Shown here: positions 29,671-39,475 of the stretch, piece by piece
Layout of the letters: each line of letters begins with the position of its first letter
How positions within the stretch are numbered: position 1 is the stretch's first letter
Source: Dongia mobilis
Lineage (GTDB): Bacteria > Pseudomonadota > Alphaproteobacteria > Dongiales > Dongiaceae
DNA: 64,000 nucleotides
Assembly (NCBI RefSeq): GCF_004363235.1
Contig: NZ_SNYW01000008.1
Location: 434,001-498,000 of the forward strand
Reading direction: 5' to 3'
Made by a program: the position numbers and the translations under genes
Notes under the pieces: model-generated
What the model was told of the DNA's origin: nothing
Databases searched by the model: none
What the model saw: the letters and a program-made list of their open reading frames with translations, nothing else

Positions 29671-30033
29671 TCAATAGAGCCGGCCGCCATTGGGCACGTC
29701 GAGGCTGGGTGCCACCAGCACCACCTCGCCCTCCGCATCCGGAAATCCCAGCACCAGTACTTCGGACATGAACTTGCCGATCTGCTTCTTCGGAAAATTC
29801 ACCACCGCCGCCACCTGCCGGCCGGGCAGTTCATCAAGGGCATAGCGCTTCGTGATTTGGGCCGACGAGCGTTTCATTCCGATCTCGGGCCCGAAATCGA
29901 CGGTCAGCTTGTAGGCCGGACGCCGCGCCTCCGGATAGGGCTCGGCGGCGACGATCGTGCCGACCCGGATATCGACCTTGCGGAAGTCGTCATAGCTGAT
30001 TTCGGCGGCAATCGGTTCCGGCTGGCTGGTCAT
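29671..30033 (-). CDS. csaA: CsaA-type tRNA-binding/chaperone protein
   Basis: The 120-residue protein is a single OB-fold of the CsaA/tRNA-binding type, related to the C-terminus of methionyl-tRNA synthetase. Family marks are FRKVDIRVGTIVAAEPYPEA, RRPAYKLTVDFG, KRSSAQITKRY and GRQVAAVVNFPKKQIGKFMS. CsaA is linked to export-related chaperone activity in Bacillus. It lies 38 bases after the lipoate-ligase-like gene on the same strand but is probably not part of that system. Confidence 0.92.
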   Translation of the reverse strand: MTSQPEPIAAEISYDDFRKVDIRVGTIVAAEPYPEARRPAYKLTVDFGPEIGMKRSSAQITKRYALDELPGRQVAAVVNFPKKQIGKFMSEVLVLGFPDAEGEVVLVAPSLDVPNGGRLY

Positions 30034-30071: not shown

Positions 30072-30764
30072 CTAACCGGGGAGCGGCGTCGTGCGCAAGG
30101 CATCGCGGAAGATTGCCGCGACAATATCCAGGACCGACTCGCGGCCGAGATGGCTGGCGAGCGAGGTCGCCGCCCCGGGGCGCCAGCGCCGTTCTGGCAT
30201 GAATGCATCCTCGAAGGCGGCAAGGGCATCGAAGGGGCGGGCGAGTTCGCCTTCGACCAGCAGGCAGGCATGAGCGAGGATCGCCTGGCCGCCGCCTGTG
30301 GCGCGCTTGCGGCGCTGGGCGACGCCGGCGATCTTGCGACCACCCAGCGCAAGGTCATAGCGGCCGGGGCAGAAGGCATCGGCGATCTCGCCCGTCTCGA
30401 CTGCGAGGCCGAGTTCACCGAGGGCACGGGCGAGCAGATCGGCCAGGTGCCGGTAGGCATCGTCGATCGACCATGGGTTCCCAGGGCCAATGCGATAGGC
30501 GAGGGCGATGTTGAGCATGCCGTGAAATTGCGCCACCGGGGCGCCGCCGGTCGCGCGCACAAGGACCGGCCAGCCACGCGCAAGGGAAGCCGCCGCTGCC
30601 GGCTCGAAGCCGGCGAGGGCGGCCACCCGCGACGGCACGATCAGCGCCTCGTCCATACGCCAAAGGCGTGCAGCGGCCTGGGCACCGGCGGCAACCCCGT
30701 CCAGCAATTCGGCTTCTCCGGCCAGCGCCGGTTCCGCTGCCGCCGGTACCAGGTTGTCGATCAA
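30072..30764 (-). CDS. Lipoate-protein ligase-like protein
   Basis: The 230-residue protein matches the biotin/lipoate ligase fold: ALIVPSR, WPVLVRATGGAPVAQ, GMLNIALAYRI, FCPGRYDLAL and the conserved lysine K144 in GGRKIAGVAQRRK. It most likely lipoylates the tiny lipoyl protein coded just upstream. The start is unclear. TTG 30764 has no good ribosome-binding site, and the frame is continuous with the lipoyl gene through RVAAIFR to its TGA, with the typical FRLID opening lying before the TTG. Reinitiation after the TGA is likely. Confidence 0.75.
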   Translation of the reverse strand: MIDNLVPAAAEPALAGEAELLDGVAAGAQAAARLWRMDEALIVPSRVAALAGFEPAAAASLARGWPVLVRATGGAPVAQFHGMLNIALAYRIGPGNPWSIDDAYRHLADLLARALGELGLAVETGEIADAFCPGRYDLALGGRKIAGVAQRRKRATGGGQAILAHACLLVEGELARPFDALAAFEDAFMPERRWRPGAATSLASHLGRESVLDIVAAIFRDALRTTPLPG

Positions 30765-30785
30765 TCGGAAGATGGCGGCAACCCG

Positions 30786-31016
30786 TCAGGCGATGGCGGC
30801 GATGATGCTGCCGCGCTTGAAGGGCTGTTCCGCCGGCACGCGGATCCGCAGGATGCCGGCAGCCGGGGCCGTCACGTCGAAACTGGTCTTTTCCACCATC
30901 ACCTCGGCAATCAGATCGCCTGCGCGCACCGCATCACCATCGGCAAAGAGCCAGGCGGAGACGGCACCCTCGATCTCACCTTCCCAGAGATCGGCGGGAA
31001 TCACCACCGGAATCAT
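30786..31016 (-). CDS. Free-standing lipoyl-domain carrier protein
   Basis: The 76 residues are just one biotinyl/lipoyl domain. K43, in the turn VMVEKTSFDVTAPAAG, is the expected attachment site. A normal E2 would continue with a subunit-binding domain and an acyltransferase domain; both are absent, and the gene ends cleanly at TGA 30788-30786. Its ATG overlaps the E1-beta stop (ATGA). It presumably acts as a mobile carrier for the adjacent E1. Biotin rather than lipoate is possible, but the ligase next door favours lipoate. Confidence 0.85.
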   Translation of the reverse strand: MIPVVIPADLWEGEIEGAVSAWLFADGDAVRAGDLIAEVMVEKTSFDVTAPAAGILRIRVPAEQPFKRGSIIAAIA

Positions 31017-32056
31017 CGGCCTGCCCGCACGATCTGCCGGGCTGTGGCGACAATCTTTGCCGCGCTGGGCAGGGCGGGATGCTCCAGCGCCGGGCTGAAG
31101 GGGATCGGGATGTCGGGAAAGGCGATGCGCCGTGGCGGCGCCTTCAGTGCAACGCCCGATTCCACCACCGAGGCGATGATCTCGCCCGAGACGCCGAAGC
31201 TCTGATAATCCTCGTCAACCACCAGCAGGCGCCCGGTCTTTGCCGTCGAGGCGATGATGGTGGCGCGGTCGAGCGGCACCAGGGTGCGAAGATCGACCAC
31301 CTCCGCCGCGATGCCTTCTTCGCCGAGACTCTGGGCGGCGTCGAGCGCCAGATGTACGCCGGCCCCCAGGCTGACGATGCAGATGTCGTTGCCGGCCCGG
31401 CAGATCGCTGCCTGGCCGAAGGGGATCTCATAGGCATCCTCGGGCACGTCGGTGATGCTGCCCTGCACCGTGCCGAGCCAGCCCATGCCCTGCAGCGCCT
31501 TGTGGAACATGAAGATCACCGGGTTGTCGTCGCGGATGGCCCGGATCATCAATCCCTTGGCGTCATGTGCGTTGCTGGGGACCACCACCTTCATGCCGGG
31601 GAGATGGGCAAAGGTGCCATAGAGGCACTGGCTGTGCTGCCCGGCATCGCCATAGCCGCCGCCGACCGAGGTCATCAGCACCAGCGGCACCGGCGACTGG
31701 CCGCCGGAGAAATAGCAGTTCTTGGCGGCGAGGTTGTAGATCGCATCCATGCAGACGCCGAAGAAGTCGACGAACATCAGTTCGACCACCGGCCGCAGGC
31801 CGACCGCCGCCATGCCGACGGCGGCGCCAATGAAGCCGGTCTCGGAAATAGGCGTGTCGCGCACCCGTGCCGGACCGAATTCATCAAGCAGACCTCGGGT
31901 ATTGCCGAAGACGCCGCCGAGGGCGGCGATATCCTCGCCCAGCACCAGCACCGAATCGTCGCGGCGCATCTCCTGGGCGATCGCCTCGGCCATCGCCTTG
32001 GCGATGGTGAGGTTGCGCCGCGTCCGGTTGGGCAGGATGGTGGCGGTTGCGGTCAT
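31013..32056 (-). CDS. Thiamine-diphosphate dehydrogenase E1, beta subunit
   Basis: The 347-residue protein is an E1-beta of the 2-oxoacid/acetoin dehydrogenase type: LTIAKAMAEAIAQEM, VLGEDIAALGGVFG, DTPISETGFIGAAVGMA and DAGQHSQCLYG, then a C-terminal transketolase domain with EVVDLRTLVPLD and VVDEDYQSFGVSGEI. It pairs with the alpha subunit coded 12 bases upstream and overlaps the lipoyl gene by four bases. Substrate class cannot be fixed; acetoin or a branched-chain or diketone-derived substrate are all open. Confidence 0.9.
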   Translation of the reverse strand: MTATATILPNRTRRNLTIAKAMAEAIAQEMRRDDSVLVLGEDIAALGGVFGNTRGLLDEFGPARVRDTPISETGFIGAAVGMAAVGLRPVVELMFVDFFGVCMDAIYNLAAKNCYFSGGQSPVPLVLMTSVGGGYGDAGQHSQCLYGTFAHLPGMKVVVPSNAHDAKGLMIRAIRDDNPVIFMFHKALQGMGWLGTVQGSITDVPEDAYEIPFGQAAICRAGNDICIVSLGAGVHLALDAAQSLGEEGIAAEVVDLRTLVPLDRATIIASTAKTGRLLVVDEDYQSFGVSGEIIASVVESGVALKAPPRRIAFPDIPIPFSPALEHPALPSAAKIVATARQIVRAGR

Positions 32057-32068
32057 GACACTCTCCCC

Positions 32069-33049
32069 TCAGGCGAAGACTTTTTCATAGGCCTGCTCGG
32101 GCACCGGATAGGCTGCCGCGCGCGCCTTGGAGATCGCCCGGTCGACCAGCGCTTCCGCCTCATCGGTGAGAGCACGGTCCGCCGTCGGGTCCAGGATGCC
32201 GAGGCCGAGCAGCTTCGCGCGCAGCTGCGGAATAGGGTCGGTCAGAGCCTCCTTCTCGCCCTTGGGCCGATAACCTTCCGCATCGCCAATGAAATGTCCG
32301 GCCAGGCGGTGGGTCTCGATCTCGATCAGGCTGGGTCCCTCGCCAGCACGGGCCCGGGCGATGGCGGCGCCGGCCACGGCGAAGATCGCCTCCGGATCGT
32401 TGCCGGCGACGCGGTGCCCCGGCATGCCATAGGCGGCGGCGCGGGCATCGTTTTGCGGCACTGCCGTGGATTGCGCCTTGGCGACCGAGATCCCCCAGGC
32501 ATTGTCCTCGATCACGATGACCACCGGCGCCTGCCAGATTGCGGCGAGGTTGAGCGATTCGTGAAAGGCGCCCTGATTGGCCGCCCCTTCGCCGATGAAG
32601 GAGACGGCGACGCGCCTTTCATTGCGCAGCTTGAAGGCGGTGGCAGCCCCCACCGCCGGCCCCATCCCTTGCGCGATGATGCCGGAACAACAGAAATTCA
32701 CCGCGGCGTCGAATATGTGCATATGGCCGCCACGACCACCGCTCAAGCCCGTTGCCTTGCCGAAGATCTCGGCTGCCATGGCGTCGAGATCGACCCCCTT
32801 GGCGATGGCAATGTGGTGCGGCCGGTGGGTCGCGGTGACGAAATCGCCGGCATCGAGATGCGCACAGACGCCCACGGCGCAGGGTTCCTGGCCGTTGGAG
32901 AGGTGCATCTCGCCCGGAATAGGGCCATTCGCCATGTTGAAGACTGGCGACTTGCCCTCGAAATAGGCGGCGGCGATCCGTTCCTCGAAAATGCGGGACT
33001 TCACCATGGTCTGGTACATCCAGAGCCATTGCTTTGGACTCGGGCGCAT
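32069..33049 (-). CDS. Thiamine-diphosphate dehydrogenase E1, alpha subunit
   Basis: The 326-residue protein is an AcoA/PdhA-like E1-alpha. It has MYQTMVKSRIFEERI, HLSNGQEPCAVGV, RGGHMHIFD and the thiamine-diphosphate motif from G153-E-G to N183 (ending VIVIEDN). It decarboxylates or cleaves a 2-oxo substrate and passes the acyl group to lipoate. ATG 33049 has GGGGAGG five bases upstream; the open frame to 33139 is rejected. The cupin gene lies 52 bases upstream on the same strand. Confidence 0.92.
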   Translation of the reverse strand: MRPSPKQWLWMYQTMVKSRIFEERIAAAYFEGKSPVFNMANGPIPGEMHLSNGQEPCAVGVCAHLDAGDFVTATHRPHHIAIAKGVDLDAMAAEIFGKATGLSGGRGGHMHIFDAAVNFCCSGIIAQGMGPAVGAATAFKLRNERRVAVSFIGEGAANQGAFHESLNLAAIWQAPVVIVIEDNAWGISVAKAQSTAVPQNDARAAAYGMPGHRVAGNDPEAIFAVAGAAIARARAGEGPSLIEIETHRLAGHFIGDAEGYRPKGEKEALTDPIPQLRAKLLGLGILDPTADRALTDEAEALVDRAISKARAAAYPVPEQAYEKVFA

Positions 33050-33101
33050 CGGACGCCTCCCCTGATGTGATGCCGGTTGAGGTGTTGCCAGGACGAAGAT
33101 G

Positions 33102-33533
33102 TCAGGCGGCCAGGGCTTGTTTCGCCTGCGCGTCGGCAAAGAATTTCCAGTCGAGCATCATGATGATCGACTTGTCCGGGTTCACGAAGGCAACCGGGCC
33201 GTGATTGGCGAACCAGAGAACCGTGTCTTCCAGGAATTCGGTGCGCTCGTGATAGACGCCGAGCGGCTCATAGCCGTAATCGCCGGCGCGGGCGATGCCG
33301 GCGCGGTAGTCCATGACGCCCTTCAGCATCAGATATTCGCCGGCGCCGTAATGGAAATGCGGCGCGAAACTGGAGCCCTTGTCGCATTTGAAAAGAACGG
33401 TCCAGGTGCCGGTCTCGGGGCTGACCCGCAGCACCTTGAAGGCGATGGCATCGGTGAATGGAATCCACGCCATCTTTTCGGTTTCGCACAGGATGTCGGC
33501 GGGATTGCTGTCCGCCGGAAGCGCATCGGCCAT
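33102..33533 (-). CDS. Three-His cupin dioxygenase, acetylacetone-cleaving (Dke1)-like
   Basis: The 143-residue single-domain cupin has H59 and H61 (APHFHYGAGEY) and H95 (GVYHERT) in place for a three-histidine Fe(II) site, the arrangement known from acetylacetone dioxygenase Dke1. Segments IPFTDAI, SPETGTWTVLFKC, GSSFAPH and ANHGPVAFV also resemble Dke1 as I recall it. That enzyme splits a beta-diketone into acetate and methylglyoxal. It leads an operon with E1 subunits. ATG 33533 has AAGGAAA upstream. A 2,4'-dihydroxyacetophenone dioxygenase-like role is the main alternative. Confidence 0.65.
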   Translation of the reverse strand: MADALPADSNPADILCETEKMAWIPFTDAIAFKVLRVSPETGTWTVLFKCDKGSSFAPHFHYGAGEYLMLKGVMDYRAGIARAGDYGYEPLGVYHERTEFLEDTVLWFANHGPVAFVNPDKSIIMMLDWKFFADAQAKQALAA

Positions 33534-33684
33534 TGTCGGTTTCCTTCCAGTTTGTTCCAGAAACTCGTTGATTTGACTGGTTCCGGATTCTGCAGGACAG
33601 TATGGCGATGCACTGCCGCTCAGGTCTTGCCGGAGCGGGACGCAAAACTTGCTCCAGCCTGCCAAGCCCTCGAAGAGGCCAGCC

Positions 33685-34635
33685 ATGCAGCCGGGTATCC
33701 AGGAAAGCATGATCCAGTCGACCTCCGTCCTGCCGCCGGCGCGGCAATATGACTGGTGGCGCGAGGCGGTTTCCGACACGCATCTCGGCTGGGACCTGCC
33801 GCGCCGCGACGCCGGCGATTTCCGGGCGCGCTTCCGGCACCAGGATTTCGGCCGGGCGCAGATCGTGCACTGTGCCTGCGACCCCTGCCATGGCCGCCGC
33901 GGCCGTCACGAGATCGGGCAATCGCATGAGCCGTCCTTCGGCCTGCTCTATATCCTGAAAGGCCGCGAAAGCCTCAACCAGGCGGGCCGCGAGATCGTGC
34001 TCGAAGCCGGTTCCTTCACCCTGTGGGATTCGACCCGGCCGATCGAGTTCGGCCTGCCGGACGAGTTGGAGAAGATTACCCTGCTGGTGCCGCAGGAGGC
34101 CGTGACCGACCTGCTGCCCATGGCGGCCGATCTGGTCATGCGGCCGATCAGCGGCAGGCGCGGTCGCGGCGCGTTGCTGACAACCCATCTGCGCGCCCTG
34201 GCCCGGGAAGGAGCTGCCCTGCCGGCTGGGCTGCAGGCGCCGGTCCTGCGCGCGACACTCGACCTGCTGGTCGCGGCGATCGAGCCGGAAGCGGAATCAG
34301 GCGAAGGTGCCTATCAGCGCGCGCTCCGCGCGCGCATCCAGGATTTCGTGCTCGCGCGCCTCAACGACCCTGCCCTGGGGCCGGAACTGGTGGCGGCATC
34401 GCTCGGTCTCTCGGCGCGGCAGGTGCATCGCCTGTTCAATGCCGGCGGCATCACCCTCGACCGCTGGATCTGGCGCCAGCGCCTGCAGCGCTGCCGCGAC
34501 GAGTTGAAGGCGCGACCGCACGCCTCGATCAGCGAGATCGCTTATCAATGGGGCTTCAGCGATTCGGCCCATTTCAGCCGTGCCTTCAAGGCGGCCTTCG
34601 GCCTCTCGCCCAGGGCCTTCCGCAAGGATCCATAG
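33685..34635 (+). CDS. AraC-family transcriptional regulator (FeaR-like layout)
   Basis: The 316-residue regulator has an N-terminal AraC-binding-like sensor domain (YDWWREAVSDTHLGWDL, SFGLLYILKGRESLNQAG) and a C-terminal double helix-turn-helix with AASLGLSARQVHRLFN and ISEIAYQWGFSDSAHFSRAFK. This layout is common in activators of aromatic, amine or ketone breakdown. ATG 33685 is preferred (AGAGG upstream), with ATG 33709 and TTG 33649 possible. It is divergent from the cupin-E1-lipoyl operon and is its likely regulator. The 151-base gap shows no clear inverted repeat. Confidence 0.88.
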   Translation: MQPGIQESMIQSTSVLPPARQYDWWREAVSDTHLGWDLPRRDAGDFRARFRHQDFGRAQIVHCACDPCHGRRGRHEIGQSHEPSFGLLYILKGRESLNQAGREIVLEAGSFTLWDSTRPIEFGLPDELEKITLLVPQEAVTDLLPMAADLVMRPISGRRGRGALLTTHLRALAREGAALPAGLQAPVLRATLDLLVAAIEPEAESGEGAYQRALRARIQDFVLARLNDPALGPELVAASLGLSARQVHRLFNAGGITLDRWIWRQRLQRCRDELKARPHASISEIAYQWGFSDSAHFSRAFKAAFGLSPRAFRKDP

Positions 34636-34669: not shown

Positions 34670-36208
34670 CTATTCCGCCGCCTGCTTGGTTTCCTCCGGC
34701 TTCCAGCGCAGGATCGGCTGGCGCGCGGCCAGCGTTTCATCCAGGCGCCGGCGCGGCGTGTGATAGGGGGCGCCGCGGAAATACTCGGCGTCGCCCATCT
34801 TGGCGCGCTTGGCGAGGCCCTTCACCACGCCGATATAACGATCGAGGCCGATCTTGCTTTCGGTTTCTGTCGGCTCCATCAGCAGGGCGCCATGGACGAC
34901 CAGGGGGAAATACATGGTCATCGGGTGATAGCCCTCGTCGATCATCGCCTTGGCGAAATCGAGGGTGGTGACGCCGGTGCCTTCGAGGAAGTCGTCATTG
35001 AACAGCGCCTCGTGCATGCAGGTGCCGGGGAAGGCGGCGGTGAGTTCGTCGCGCAGGCAGGCGAGGAGATAGTTCGCATTGAGGACCGCATCGCCCGAGA
35101 CCTGGCGCAGGCCGTCGGCGCCGTGGCTCAGCATGTAGGATAGCGCGCGGGTGAACATGCCCATCTGGCCATGGAAACCCTTGAGGCGGCCGAACGACCC
35201 CTTTGGTCCATCCGGACCGTCATCATGCTCGACCAGATCGAAGCCGTTGGCGCCGTGGGTGACGTAGGGCAGTGGCGCATAGGGGGCGAGCGCCGCCGAC
35301 AGCACGACCGGGCCGGAACCCGGCCCGCCGCCGCCATGGGGTGTCGAGAAGGTCTTGTGAAGATTGATGTGCATGGCGTCGACGCCGAGATCGCCCGGCC
35401 GCACGCGGCCGACGATGGCGTTGAAATTGGCGCCGTCGCAGTAGAAGTAGCCACCCACTCCATGGATCGCATCGGCGATGTCGACGATGTCGTTCTCGAA
35501 CAGGCCGCAGGTATTCGGGTTGGTGATCATGGTGCCGGCGACATCGGGGCCGAGCTTCGCCTTGAAGGCGGCAAGGTCGACGCGGCCGCGCTCATCCGCC
35601 GGGACCGGATCGACCTCGTAGCCAATGCTGGCGGCGGTGGCCGGGTTGGTGCCGTGGGCGGATTCCGGTACCAGGATGCGCTTCCTGGCGTCGCCCTTGG
35701 CGAGATGCGCGGCGCGGATGGCCAGCATGCCGCAAAGCTCGCCATGGGCGCCGGCGGCCGGCGACATGGCGACGGCCGGCATGCCGGTCAGGGTCTTCAG
35801 CCAGTGTGCCAGGGTATCGATCAGTTCCAGCGCCCCCTGCACGGTCGAGACGGGCTGCATCGGATGCAGGTCGGCGATTCCTTGCAGGCGCGCCATCTTC
35901 TCGTTGAGGCGCGGATTGTGCTTCATGGTGCAGGAGCCCAAAGGATAGACCGACATGTCGATCGCGTAGTTCTTCTGGCTCAGCTTGGTGTAGTGGCGCA
36001 CCACCTGCGGCTCGGCGAGACCCGGCAGGCCGATCGCGCCCTTGCGCTTCAAGCTGCCCAGGCGTTCCTTGTGCTGCGGCACGTCGGGCAGGTCGACGCC
36101 GGATCGGCCCTTTACGTCCATCTCGAAGATCAGCGGCTCCTCGATCATCAGGCCGCGATTGCCCGAGATGGTATCGGTGTTCACGTTCACATTGGCGGGC
36201 GCGCTCAT
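34670..36208 (-). CDS. gcvPB: Glycine dehydrogenase (decarboxylating), subunit 2
   Basis: This is the PLP-carrying half of the P-protein of glycine cleavage. The 512-residue protein has [48 protein letters not shown], and the PLP-lysine region [21 protein letters not shown]. It decarboxylates glycine and loads aminomethyl onto GcvH lipoate, together with GcvPA. It overlaps gcvPA by four bases. The split P-protein is normal for many alphaproteobacteria. Confidence 0.96.
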
Positions 36209-37551
36209 GCCAGCACCTCCTTGAGGCCGCTCTCGAGCGCGGCCATGTCGTCGTCGCTATTGAGTTCCGTCGCCGCCACCAGCAGCAGGTTCTCCGCCTC
36301 CGGGGCGGGATGCAGGCGGAAGACCGGTACGCCGCCGAGGATGCGCTTCTTCGCCAGCGCCTCGACCACCGGCACGGCCGGTTTCGGCAAGGCCAGGGTG
36401 AACTCGTTGAAGAATGTGTCGTTCAGCAGCTTGACGCCGGGCAGGGCGGCAAGTCGATCGGCTAGCCGGCTCGCCTTGGCGTGGTTGAGAGCGGCCAGCT
36501 TCGCAAGCCCCGCTTCGCCCAGCAGGGTGAGGTGCATGGTGAAGGCCAGCGCGCAGAGGCCGGAGTTGGTGCAGATGTTGCTGGTCGCCTTCTCGCGCCT
36601 GATATGCTGCTCGCGGGTGGAGAGGGTAAGGACCCAGCCACGCCTGCCATCGACATCGACGGTCTGGCCGGCAAGGCGCCCCGGCATCTGCCGCAGGTAT
36701 TTTTCGCGCGCCGCAAAGAGGCCGACATAGGGCCCGCCGAAGCCCAAGGGATTGCCGAGTGACTGGCCTTCGGCGACGACGATGTCGGCACCCATCTCGC
36801 CGGGCGGCGTCACCAGCCCGAGGGAGACGATCTCGGTCACGGCAACGATCAAAAGGGCGCCCGCCGCGTGGACCGCCTCGGCGAGCCTGGTGAAATCCGA
36901 GAGATGGCCGAAGAAGCTGGGATTCTGCACGACCACGCAGGAAACATCCGGCCCCAGTTGCGCAACCAGATCCTCCTTGCCCTTTGCATCCAGCGGCGCC
37001 ACCACGGTTTCGAAGCCGGTGTGGTGGCCGTGGGTGACGACCACGTCGCGATAATGCGGATGCAGACCGCCGGAGAGCACGGCCTTTTTCCGCCGCGTGA
37101 CGCGGTTCGCCATGGCGACCGCTTCCGTTGTCGCCGTGGCGCCGTCATACATCGAGGCGTTGGCGACATCCATCGCGGTGACGAGCGCCACCTGGGTCTG
37201 GAATTCGAACAGGTATTGCAGCGTGCCCTGGGCCACTTCGGGCTGGTAGGGCGTGTAGGAGGTGAGGAATTCGCCGCGCTGGATGAGGTGATCCACCGCC
37301 GCCGGGATGTGATGGCGATAGGCGCCCGCACCCAGGAAGCTCGGCGCCTCCGAGGTGCCGAGATTCTTGCGCGCCATGCCGCCGATGACGCGCTCCACCT
37401 CCATCTCCGGCAGATGATTGGTAAGCCCCGCAATCGGCTGGGCCAGCAGTTTTTCCTTTGGCACGTCGCCATAAAGGGCGTCGATCGAGGGAACGCCGAT
37501 CTTCGCCAGCATCACCTGGCGGTCGGCATCAGTCTGCGGCAGGAAGCGCAT
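36205..37551 (-). CDS. gcvPA: Glycine dehydrogenase (decarboxylating), subunit 1
   Basis: This is the other half of the split P-protein, 448 residues, lacking the PLP lysine. Family segments are [51 protein letters not shown] and [10 protein letters not shown], with [14 protein letters not shown] in the C-terminal half. It lies 24 bases after gcvH and its stop overlaps gcvPB, so the two subunits are translated in step. Confidence 0.96.
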
Positions 37552-37575
37552 GATGCGTCCGATCCTCTCTCTGGC

Positions 37576-37953
37576 TCAATGCAGGCCGTCGCAATAGGCC
37601 TTGTAGGCGGCCTCATCCATCAATTCGTCGAGCTCGGCCTTGCTGGCGATGCGGAGCTTGGCAAACCAGCCCTTGCCCAGCGCGTCCTCGTTGACCGTGC
37701 CGGGCGCGTCGCCGAGGGCCGCGTTGACCTCGACCACCTCGCCGCCCACCGGCGCATAGACCTCGGAGGCTGCCTTGACCGATTCGACCACCGCAAGCTC
37801 CTTGCCCTTCTCGACTTTCTTGCCGATGGCCGGCAGGTCGACGAACACCACATCGCCCAACTGCTCCTGGGCATAGGGGCTGATGCCCACCGTGGCGACA
37901 TCGCCCTCAAGCTTCACCCACTCATGTTCCTTGCTGAAGCGAATACCGCTCAT
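37576..37953 (-). CDS. gcvH: Glycine cleavage H protein
   Basis: GcvH is the lipoyl carrier of glycine cleavage. The 125-residue protein has [20 protein letters not shown], the lipoylated K60 in [14 protein letters not shown], and [18 protein letters not shown] 37953 has AGGAG nine bases upstream; the longer frame to 38025 is rejected. It offers a useful contrast with the other free lipoyl protein at 30786, which shares only the lipoyl fold. Confidence 0.97.
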
Positions 37954-38031
37954 CCCTGATATCTCCTCTGTTTTCGCGCGCGTCCTGCTGGGATCGTCGC
38001 GCTTTTCTCCGGTGAAACTGACCATGATGAC

Positions 38032-39177
38032 TTAGCCGCGATGGTAGCGATGCGGCACGAAGGGCATCGGCGCCACCTTCGCCGGCAGGGCCTTGCCGCG
38101 CACCATCAGGTTGAGTTGCGTGCCGTCGGCGGCCTGTGCCGTCGCCACATAGCCCATGGCGATCGGCGCGCCGAGGCTGGGCCCGAAGCCGCCGGACGTG
38201 ACCTCGCCGATGGTTGCGCCGTTCTGGTCCGAGATTTCGGTATGGGCGCGGGCCGGCGCCTTGCCCTCGGGCAGGATACCGACACGGCGGCGTGCTGGAC
38301 CGTCGCGCAATTGCTGCTGCACGATGGCAGCACCGGGGAAGCCGCCTTCCTCGCGGCGGCGCTTCTGCATCGCCCAGACTAGGTTCGCCTCGACCGGATT
38401 CGTGGCCGGGCCGATGTCGTTGCCGTGCAGGCAGAGCCCGGCCTCGAGGCGGAGCGAGTCGCGCGCACCCAGCCCGACCGGCCTTACCGCGGCATCGGAC
38501 AGCAGGCGCTGCGCCAGATCGTGCACGGCGCCGTCCGGTACCGAGATCTCGAACCCGTCCTCGCCGGTATAGCCGGAGCGCGTGGCGAGGCAGGGGATCC
38601 CGGCCACATCCAGCGCGGTCCCTTGCATGAAGGTAAGTGCGGCGCTGCCGGGTGCGTGGCGGATGAGGACCGCCGCCGCCTGCGGTCCCTGCAGCGCGAT
38701 GAGCGAGCGGTCGGCGATCACCTCGATGTCGCAGGCCTTGTCGAGATGCGCCCTGAGATGCGCGATATCGGCCAGCTTGCAGCCGGCATTCACCACCATG
38801 AAAAGATGGTCGCCATCATCGCCGGCACCCATCCTTGTCACCATCAGGTCGTCGAGGATGCCGGCGCGGTCGTCGAGAAAAAAGGAATAGCGCTGCTGGC
38901 CGGGTTTCAGATTGATGAAATCGGCCGGGCAGAGCTTCTCGAGCGCCGCCGCCACGGTCGCGAAATCCTTCGCCCGGAGGCGGATCTGGCCCATATGAGA
39001 AACGTCGAACAGTCCGGCGGCCGCGCGCGTGTGCTGGTGTTCGGCCAGGATGCCGGCGGGATATTGAACCGGCATGTCATAACCGGCAAACGGCACCATC
39101 CTGGCGCCCAGAGACAGGTGCAGGTCATATAGGGCGGTGCGATGAAGGGCCTGGTCGGTCCCGCTGATGGCGCTCAC
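38032..39177 (-). CDS. gcvT: Aminomethyltransferase (glycine cleavage T protein)
   Basis: GcvT releases ammonia from aminomethyl-lipoate and forms methylene-tetrahydrofolate. The 381-residue protein has HLSLGARMVPFAGYDMPVQY, HTRAAAGLFDVSHMGQI, SGYTGEDGFEIS, LGARDSLRLEAGLCLHGND and VGLGARD. The start is GTG 39177 with AAGGA eight bases upstream; the frame reaches 39294 but that part overlaps the riboswitch. It is the first gene of gcvT-gcvH-gcvPA-gcvPB. Confidence 0.95.
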   Translation of the reverse strand: MSAISGTDQALHRTALYDLHLSLGARMVPFAGYDMPVQYPAGILAEHQHTRAAAGLFDVSHMGQIRLRAKDFATVAAALEKLCPADFINLKPGQQRYSFFLDDRAGILDDLMVTRMGAGDDGDHLFMVVNAGCKLADIAHLRAHLDKACDIEVIADRSLIALQGPQAAAVLIRHAPGSAALTFMQGTALDVAGIPCLATRSGYTGEDGFEISVPDGAVHDLAQRLLSDAAVRPVGLGARDSLRLEAGLCLHGNDIGPATNPVEANLVWAMQKRRREEGGFPGAAIVQQQLRDGPARRRVGILPEGKAPARAHTEISDQNGATIGEVTSGGFGPSLGAPIAMGYVATAQAADGTQLNLMVRGKALPAKVAPMPFVPHRYHRG

Positions 39178-39240
39178 GCTTAGAATCCTTCCGACAGATG
39201 GCGACCGCGACCGGGCGTCCTTGCCGGACAGCCCGCGCGA

Positions 39241-39475
39241 CCCCCCTCTGTCTTCGGAACCTGAGAGATTGGCCGTCGGCCCCGCGCGCCGCAACCGGGC
39301 GCGCCTGTAGGAAGGCTGGCGGTTTACTCCTTCGGTGGGATGAAGCCCAGGTGTGGGGCCATCCGCTTTCCAGAGTTTTTCCCCGCATCGGTCCTTTTGC
39401 CTGAGAGTTTCCGGGGGCGGTTGCTCCTTCGGCGCTCATCGCTGGTCACTCTGGCCAGTCCTGAGTCTCTCCCGA
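39241..39475 (-). ncRNA. Tandem glycine riboswitch upstream of gcvT
   Basis: On the minus strand the leader holds two glycine aptamers in series. The first (about 39475-39360) has GGGAGAGACTC, the conserved GCCGAAGGAGCAA and AACTCTCAGGCAAAAGGAC. The second (about 39345-39241) has ACCGAAGGAGTAAACC, then ATCTCTCAGGTTCCGAAGACAG. The short linker between them is normal for the cooperative tandem form. Sixty-odd bases separate it from the gcvT GTG. It should switch the glycine cleavage operon on when glycine is high; the switching hairpin itself is not obvious. Confidence 0.95.

What the first reader, a model, noticed from the sequence alone, without database searches (positions are those of the whole stretch)
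30072..34635. Compact cupin, E1 and free lipoyl-domain cluster without E2 or E3, under an AraC regulator
Seen: in order on the minus strand, a three-His cupin, E1-alpha, E1-beta, a 76-residue lone lipoyl domain and a lipoate-ligase-like protein, with a divergent AraC-family gene. Family knowledge: E1 normally hands its acyl group to lipoate on an E2 that also carries the CoA acyltransferase, and E3 reoxidises it. Here the carrier is present but the transferase and E3 are not. Inference: either a distant E2/E3 is borrowed, or the acyl or aldehyde group goes to another acceptor. A cupin that cleaves diketones would supply a 2-oxo substrate. This reads as an undescribed inducible carbonyl-compound catabolic module with its own carrier and ligase.
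Basis: partly seen in the sequence, partly recalled or inferred. Interest (0 to 1): 0.78.

Follow-up and report, generated by a model that had tools for sequence, protein, structure and literature searches.

The report
Disassembled dehydrogenase with free lipoyl carrier
This bacterium carries a small, probably inducible gene set whose relatives in other bacteria and in salt-loving archaea look like a carbonyl-splitting enzyme system in which the usual one-piece swinging-arm protein is broken up into separate small proteins, and in this lineage one of those pieces is missing.

Summary
In detail: cupin, E1-alpha, E1-beta, a 76-residue lipoyl protein and a lipoyl-attachment enzyme lie in that order, with a divergent AraC gene. 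The genome is kin to Dongia. The cluster is no strain accident: of 30 E1-beta homologues compared, 30 have the lone lipoyl gene next to E1-beta, in proteobacteria, Rhodococcus and haloarchaea. In 18 of 30 a free-standing E2 catalytic domain follows. In 12 of 30, including all six Dongiaceae loci, it is not linked. In the nine genomes with the E2-less form, 24 of 25 E2 catalytic domains share a reading frame with a lipoyl domain; the other is a contig-edge fragment. So this is a split-E2, acetoin-dehydrogenase-like system, and the window carries the form without its acyltransferase. The 'ligase' is better read as a LipL-like cysteine amidotransferase. The cupin keeps all seven functional residues of acetylacetone dioxygenase (Dke1) named in a review, but is linked only in Dongiaceae. 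A direct repeat between AraC and cupin is exact in five of six loci. Most likely an E2 and an E3 of another complex are borrowed; a non-CoA acceptor is not excluded. Substrate unknown. New variant of a known kind.

The parts
33102..33533 (-). Dke1-like 3-His cupin (PF12973), 143 aa
   Evidence: Pfam 131 bits (longer ORF); 3bal E 9e-20, 2o1q E 6e-26; residues aligned with Dke1 His62, His64, His104, Tyr70, Arg80, Glu98, Thr107 are identical here and in 6 of 6 Dongiaceae
32069..33049 (-). E1-alpha (ThDP dehydrogenase alpha subunit)
   Evidence: PF00676 213 bits; GHFxGD loop as in two acetoin-type E1-alpha
31013..32056 (-). E1-beta
   Evidence: PF02779/PF02780; clade of 30 apart from own PDH, BKD and acetoin-type and one Caballeronia acetoin-type E1-beta, 100/99 support
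30786..31016 (-). free lipoyl-domain carrier protein, 76 aa, lipoyl Lys in VEKTSFD; its start overlaps the E1-beta stop by 4 nt
   Evidence: PF00364 41 bits; the Lys is kept in 30 of 30
30072..30764 (-). LipL-like lipoyl/octanoyl amidotransferase, presumably for the carrier
   Evidence: PF21948 64 bits; NCBIfam best NF053589 69.6 bits against a cut-off of 400; 2p5i/2p0l; Cys and the Lys of (G/A)RK in 19 of 19 aligned, 18 cluster members and one acetoin-operon homologue
33685..34635 (+). divergent AraC-family regulator (AraC_binding_2 + HTH_18)
   Evidence: FeaR model 155 bits, below its cut-off of 199; found in 6 of 6 Dongiaceae loci and not found within 9 kb in the other 24 (tblastn)
33625..33651 (-). 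candidate AraC operator: direct repeat CAAG-N17-GCAAGA (22-bp period) between the AraC and cupin starts
   Evidence: only match in the window, 0.09 expected (pattern chosen after seeing the alignment); exact at the same place in window, L019, L020, L047, L048; one mismatch in L053
34670..39294 (-). neighbour, not a part: glycine cleavage genes gcvT-gcvH-gcvPA-gcvPB; GcvH is a possible octanoyl/lipoyl donor
   Evidence: GcvH over NCBIfam cut-off; gcvPB adjacent in 4 of 6 Dongiaceae loci

Best explanation
An inducible ThDP/lipoyl carbonyl-catabolism module of the acetoin-dehydrogenase type whose E2 is split. The LipL-like enzyme attaches octanoyl/lipoyl to the free 76-aa carrier. E1-alpha/beta cleaves an alpha-dicarbonyl, hydroxyketone or 2-oxo compound and reductively acylates the carrier. 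The carrier then diffuses, as GcvH does, to an acyltransferase that moves the acyl group to CoA, and to a shared E3 for reoxidation. In 18 of 30 relatives that acyltransferase is a separate gene next to the carrier; in this lineage the gene is gone and the E2 core of another complex (PDH most likely) is used in trans. The cupin, a Dke1-like Fe(II) dioxygenase, supplies the E1 substrate by C-C cleavage, and AraC induces the operon. Shown: the anatomy, its conservation, the split, the absence of a free-standing E2 domain from nine genomes, the kept residues. Inferred: the reaction, the borrowed E2 and E3, the substrate, the regulation, loss rather than gain.
For: Lone lipoyl gene next to E1-beta in 30 of 30; free E2 catalytic domain next to it in 18 of 30; attachment enzyme in 18 of 30, and one 8 kb away in Sphingomonas. 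Four of the 18 free E2 domains were domain-scanned and carry PF00198 only, while own PDH and BKD-like E2 carry lipoyl + E3_binding + PF00198. DHRxxDG is complete in 16 of 18; G741 has DHRxxNG and the Aminobacter frame stops after DH. Lack of a linked E2 is scattered over the E1-beta tree: 5 changes, at least 4 by starred branches. In the 9 genomes with the E2-less form there are 25 PF00198 places; 24 share an open frame with a lipoyl domain and the 25th (G290:C23) is a fragment at a contig start. G165 and G263 have just two E2 genes each and no acetoin-type E2 over cut-off. Own genome holds LipB, LipA, GcvH, two E3 and a PDH E2, all over their cut-offs. GHFxGD in 9 of 9 readable of the 10 members shown, as in both acetoin-type E1 and unlike own PDH and BKD. 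Cupin residues.
Against: Nothing here shows lipoylation, activity or substrate, and no call shows that PDH E2 accepts a foreign free carrier. The E1 subunits match PDH models too, below the E1-alpha cut-off (260 against 394) but at 322 bits against a cut-off of 321 for the broad PDH E1-beta subfamily NF006667. The cupin is linked only in Dongiaceae. Haladaptatus chromosomes were not searched. In the tree the deepest proteobacterial line, G159, has no E2, and long branches (Rhodococcus, Sphingomonas) were flagged.
Confidence: 0.55

Rival explanations
1. E2-free system: the acyl group never goes to CoA. The acyl-carrier is hydrolysed, or the carrier serves only as electron acceptor (oxidative cleavage to a free acid), with E3 regenerating lipoyl, in a glycine-cleavage-like layout.
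For: No free-standing E2 domain in any of 9 genomes with the E2-less form (24 of 25 E2 domains sit with a lipoyl domain, one is a fragment). The E2-less form keeps carrier and attachment enzyme in Dongiaceae, G159 and G698/G726.
Against: Close relatives pair the same E1 and carrier with an apparently active acyltransferase. Borrowing an E2 needs no new gene.
Confidence: 0.2
2. The borrowed acyltransferase is the acetoin-type E2 (lipoyl + alpha/beta hydrolase) at G000:C8:20 kb, not PDH E2.
For: That E2 passes its NCBIfam cut-off (407 against 307) and its E1 pair is the nearest of the three own paralogue pairs compared (41.6% and 46.3%).
Against: Only 4 of the 9 genomes with the E2-less form have such an E2 over the cut-off (G000, G291, G698, G726); G165, G263, G290, G299 and G159 do not. 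I lowered this rival for that reason.
Confidence: 0.04
3. A decaying remnant: the E2 gene was lost and the rest is on its way out.
For: Some relatives are damaged: the G299 E1-alpha span holds one stop, the Mameliella E1-beta match lies in two frames, Aminobacter has transposase genes where E1-alpha should be and its E2 frame is short.
Against: Five Dongia loci have no stop in any matched span of E1-alpha, E1-beta, lipoyl, attachment enzyme and AraC and an open cupin; catalytic residues and, in four of the five exactly, the repeat are kept.
Confidence: 0.08

Closest known systems
Acetoin dehydrogenase (AcoA/AcoB + AcoC + E3)
   Same: Two-subunit E1 with the GHFxGD loop; an attachment enzyme also follows the acetoin-type E2 gene in Caballeronia (L056); sigma-54-type regulators lie near several members, as I recall for AcoR
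   Different: Carrier is a separate 76-aa protein; the transferase, where present, is a PF00198 domain and not an alpha/beta hydrolase; E1-beta is a separate clade
2-Oxoacid dehydrogenase complexes (PDH, OGDH, BCKDH)
   Same: E1, lipoyl and PF00198 families
   Different: No multidomain E2 in the cluster; no E3-binding domain in the four scanned free E2 domains; no transferase here
Glycine cleavage H protein; LbpA of sulfur oxidation
   Same: A free lipoyl carrier protein, for LbpA with specific ligases (PMC6067878, passages)
   Different: The carrier here resembles E2 lipoyl domains and is linked to a ThDP E1
Single-domain lipoyl proteins of archaea (Borziak 2014, PMC3904984, passages and abstract)
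   Same: Proteins with a lipoyl domain alone were set apart as a class in archaea
   Different: The passages seen do not link them to E1 plus a free E2 domain, nor to bacteria
Dke1, acetylacetone dioxygenase
   Same: Metal and outer-sphere residues
   Different: The positions of Dke1 Phe115/Phe119 are Leu/Asn here (read off; their role is recalled), so the substrate may differ

Membership tests
2-oxoacid / acetoin dehydrogenase complex | ThDP-dependent E1 alpha and beta | tested here: met
   PF00676, PF02779, PF02780 over cut-off
2-oxoacid / acetoin dehydrogenase complex | multidomain E2 with lipoyl and acyltransferase domains in one chain, in the cluster | tested here: not met
   lone lipoyl gene; no PF00198 in the cluster
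2-oxoacid / acetoin dehydrogenase complex | dedicated or shared E3 | tested here: inconclusive
   no E3 in the cluster; two E3 elsewhere in the genome, sharing not shown
acetoin dehydrogenase | AcoC-type E2 (NF011457) | tested here: not met
   lipoyl protein 36 bits against cut-off 307
acetoin dehydrogenase | cleavage of acetoin to acetaldehyde and acetyl-CoA | not testable with these tools
   no activity data
LipL amidotransferase | Cys shared with LipL-type structures (role recalled) | tested here: met
   aligned with 2p5i and 2p0l; 19 of 19
LipL amidotransferase | NCBIfam equivalog score | tested here: not met
   NF047857 46.5 bits against 450; NF053589 69.6 against 400
Dke1 acetylacetone dioxygenase | 3-His site and Tyr70, Arg80, Glu98, Thr107 | tested here: met
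Dke1 acetylacetone dioxygenase | cleaves beta-diketones | not testable with these tools
   no activity data

The most novel reading that the evidence does not exclude
A ThDP dehydrogenase that has abandoned the multienzyme-complex plan: E1 works with a freely diffusing lipoyl carrier, glycine-cleavage style, and in Dongiaceae and at least two other lineages (G159; G698/G726) works without any E2 acyltransferase of its own, passing the acyl group to a non-CoA acceptor or to water. It would be a further class of lipoate-dependent system beside the five complexes and LbpA.
Probability: 0.2. Interest if true: 0.82.

Novelty: new variant of a known kind. Interest (0 to 1): 0.58.

Why it matters
Tethering of the lipoyl arm to the E2 core is the textbook reason why these complexes exist (general knowledge). 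A family seen here in proteobacteria, one actinobacterium and haloarchaea, in which carrier and transferase are separate genes and the transferase is missing in several lines, allows a direct test of whether tethering is needed. It also points to an unassigned carbonyl-catabolic route and to a carrier-linked lipoylation enzyme.

Tried and rejected
Truncated E2 unique to this strain: rejected, lone lipoyl gene in 30 of 30 homologues. A free-standing E2 domain elsewhere in the own genome: rejected, three PF00198 places in frames of 393, 431 and 470 codons, each with a lipoyl domain. The same for eight other genomes with the E2-less form: rejected but for one contig-edge fragment in G290. The acetoin-type E2 as the general partner: rejected, 4 of 9 genomes. 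CsaA-like gene (29671-30033) as a member: rejected, not found in L047/L048. Cupin as the defining part: rejected, 6 of 30. Haladaptatus caseinilyticus E2 at 73.9 kb as the missing free domain: rejected, it is a 532-aa protein next to other E1 genes. The one genome-contig scan, with the attachment enzyme as single query, gave one locus. Papers PMC10579247 and PMC11559062 matched by keyword and did not bear on this (passages). Structure prediction was not used.
Full report
The window lies in a 4.19-Mb genome (G000:C3). A genome of the same genus, G290, carries the cluster on a contig of the same length and layout as a record titled Dongia mobilis MAG (L027). The cupin is 143 aa from 33533 and E1-alpha starts at 33049. 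E1-beta's stop overlaps the start of the lipoyl gene by 4 nt, which suggests one transcript (inference).

Homologues of E1-beta. Searches of 17 genomes of the order, 385 of the class and 398 of the phylum gave 6, 5 and 6 genomes with a close homologue, own genome included each time and with overlaps between the samples (E limits 1e-105, 1e-112, 1e-112). Plasmids gave 101 records at E 1e-80; the 19 best (58-72% identity) were all fetched. With 11 genome loci this makes 30 members. The other 82 plasmid records were not used as members; one of them, Caballeronia grimmiae, served as acetoin-type outgroup.

Gene content (tblastn). The lone lipoyl gene lies next to E1-beta in 30 of 30. E1-alpha is found in 29 of 30; in Aminobacter transposase genes lie there. 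A free-standing E2 catalytic domain follows in 18 of 30: Mameliella, two Phaeobacter, Paracoccus, Gemmobacter, G744, Roseibium, Aminobacter, Sphingomonas, G741, Rhodococcus, Natrialba, Natrinema and five Halobaculum. It is not linked in 12: six Dongiaceae, G159, G698, G726 and three Haladaptatus. The attachment enzyme is in 18 of 30, all proteobacterial; Sphingomonas has one 8 kb away, Rhodococcus has a lipA gene after the E2 domain, and none was found in the ten archaeal stretches, six of which have flanks of only 6 kb. Cupin and AraC were found only in the six Dongiaceae loci. Near other members lie VOC or GMC oxidoreductase genes and sigma-54-type regulators (in G698 the best NCBIfam match is DhaR, 136 bits against 551); these links were listed, not tested.

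The split is real at the domain level. Four of the 18 free E2 domains were scanned and carry PF00198 alone, while own PDH and BKD-like E2 show lipoyl, E3_binding and PF00198 in the same library. The transferase motif DHRxxDG is complete in 16 of 18, reads DHRxxNG in G741, and the Aminobacter frame stops after DH.

The missing transferase. PF00198 places per genome with the E2-less form: own 3, G165 2, G263 2, G290 4, G291 4, G299 3, G159 3, G698 2, G726 2, together 25. A lipoyl domain lies in the same open frame for 24 of these 25; the 25th, G290:C23:4-411, is a fragment at a contig start. An acetoin-type E2 over its cut-off is in 4 of the 9. So G165 and G263 have, as far as these models see, only two full E2 genes each. 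Three Haladaptatus plasmids have 2, 0 and 1 PF00198 matches, in frames of 455-569 codons; their chromosomes were not searched. On an E1-beta tree of 34 rows the 30 members form one clade (100/99) and the E2-less state needs 5 changes, at least 4 by starred branches. The tree flags long branches (Rhodococcus meeting the outgroup, Sphingomonas), and the Dongiaceae clade itself is not starred (83/61). It cannot tell gain from loss; loss is my inference, because E2-bearing clusters occur in Rhodococcus and in most of the haloarchaea as well as in proteobacteria. Against it, G159, the deepest proteobacterial row, has none.

Activities. E1-alpha has GHF.GD where own PDH and BKD-like have GHSMSD and AHSMFD; both acetoin-type sequences have GHFEGD; 9 of 9 readable of the 10 members shown have it, G299 being cut by a stop. 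The attachment enzyme aligns best with 2p5i and 2p0l. Cys and Lys are kept in 19 of 19 aligned sequences, one of which is the Caballeronia acetoin-operon homologue, so a Cys-dependent amidotransferase is more likely than an ATP-using ligase; it scores far below the curated cut-offs, and no donor was tested. LipM and LipL are described in PMC6067878 (passages). The cupin matches Dke1 at all seven functional residues named in the passages seen of PMC4019311; weaker matches include 2,4'-dihydroxyacetophenone dioxygenase (4p9g, E 5e-5). The positions of Dke1 Phe115 and Phe119, whose role I recall and which that paper does not mention, differ.

Regulation. CAAG-N17-GCAAGA occurs once in the window (0.09 expected, 9 of 100 shuffles with a match), between the AraC and cupin starts, and at the same place exactly in four of the five other Dongiaceae loci and with one mismatch in the fifth. 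The pattern was chosen after seeing the alignment. One further exact match lies in L075, an E2 locus of G698.

Prior knowledge. PMC6067878 names five characterised lipoate-dependent complexes and adds LbpA (passages). PMC3904984 sets single-domain lipoyl proteins apart in archaea (passages, outline and abstract). I recall that work on Haloferax 2-oxoacid dehydrogenase operons mentions unattached lipoyl domains; I saw only its title in reference lists, and the 2002 paper is not held. Searches listed no paper whose listing describes E1 with a free lipoyl protein and a free E2 domain. Two of them found nothing, one search listed 12 of 106, and subscription papers are mostly missing, so this is weak evidence of novelty.

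They changed one estimate: the acetoin-type-E2 rival fell from 0.10 to 0.04.

Noticed in passing
window 34670-39294: Glycine cleavage genes gcvT-gcvH-gcvPA-gcvPB next to the AraC gene; gcvPB adjacent in 4 of 6 Dongiaceae loci, so GcvH could be the donor for the LipL-like enzyme.
   Followed up: partly
L048 7783-8769 (G299): E1-alpha of this relative has one stop inside the matched span; E1-beta, lipoyl, attachment enzyme and AraC spans have none.
   Followed up: partly
L034 9001-10040; L036 7713-10963: Plasmid copies in Mameliella (E1-beta match in two frames) and Aminobacter (IS66 genes, no E1-alpha, E2 span with a stop) look damaged.
   Followed up: partly
L022 (G000:C8:13000-29000): A separate acetoin-type E1 pair and E2 (lipoyl plus alpha/beta hydrolase, over cut-off), by eye among transporter and oxidoreductase genes.
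   Followed up: partly
L021 8725-15821 (G159): The E2-less cluster lies beside a rhodanese-like gene (by eye), a flavin oxidoreductase and a ferric-reductase-like gene.
   Followed up: no
L095 7998-8693 (Sphingobium TomMM15 plasmid): Another free-standing E2 catalytic domain (231 aa, PF00198 only) near a different E1 pair and acyl-CoA genes: the split may be wider than the family studied.
   Followed up: partly
L047 6885-9240 (G291): A 514-aa gene (phosphoesterase-like by eye) and an opposite-strand gene lie between the lipoyl and attachment-enzyme genes.
   Followed up: no
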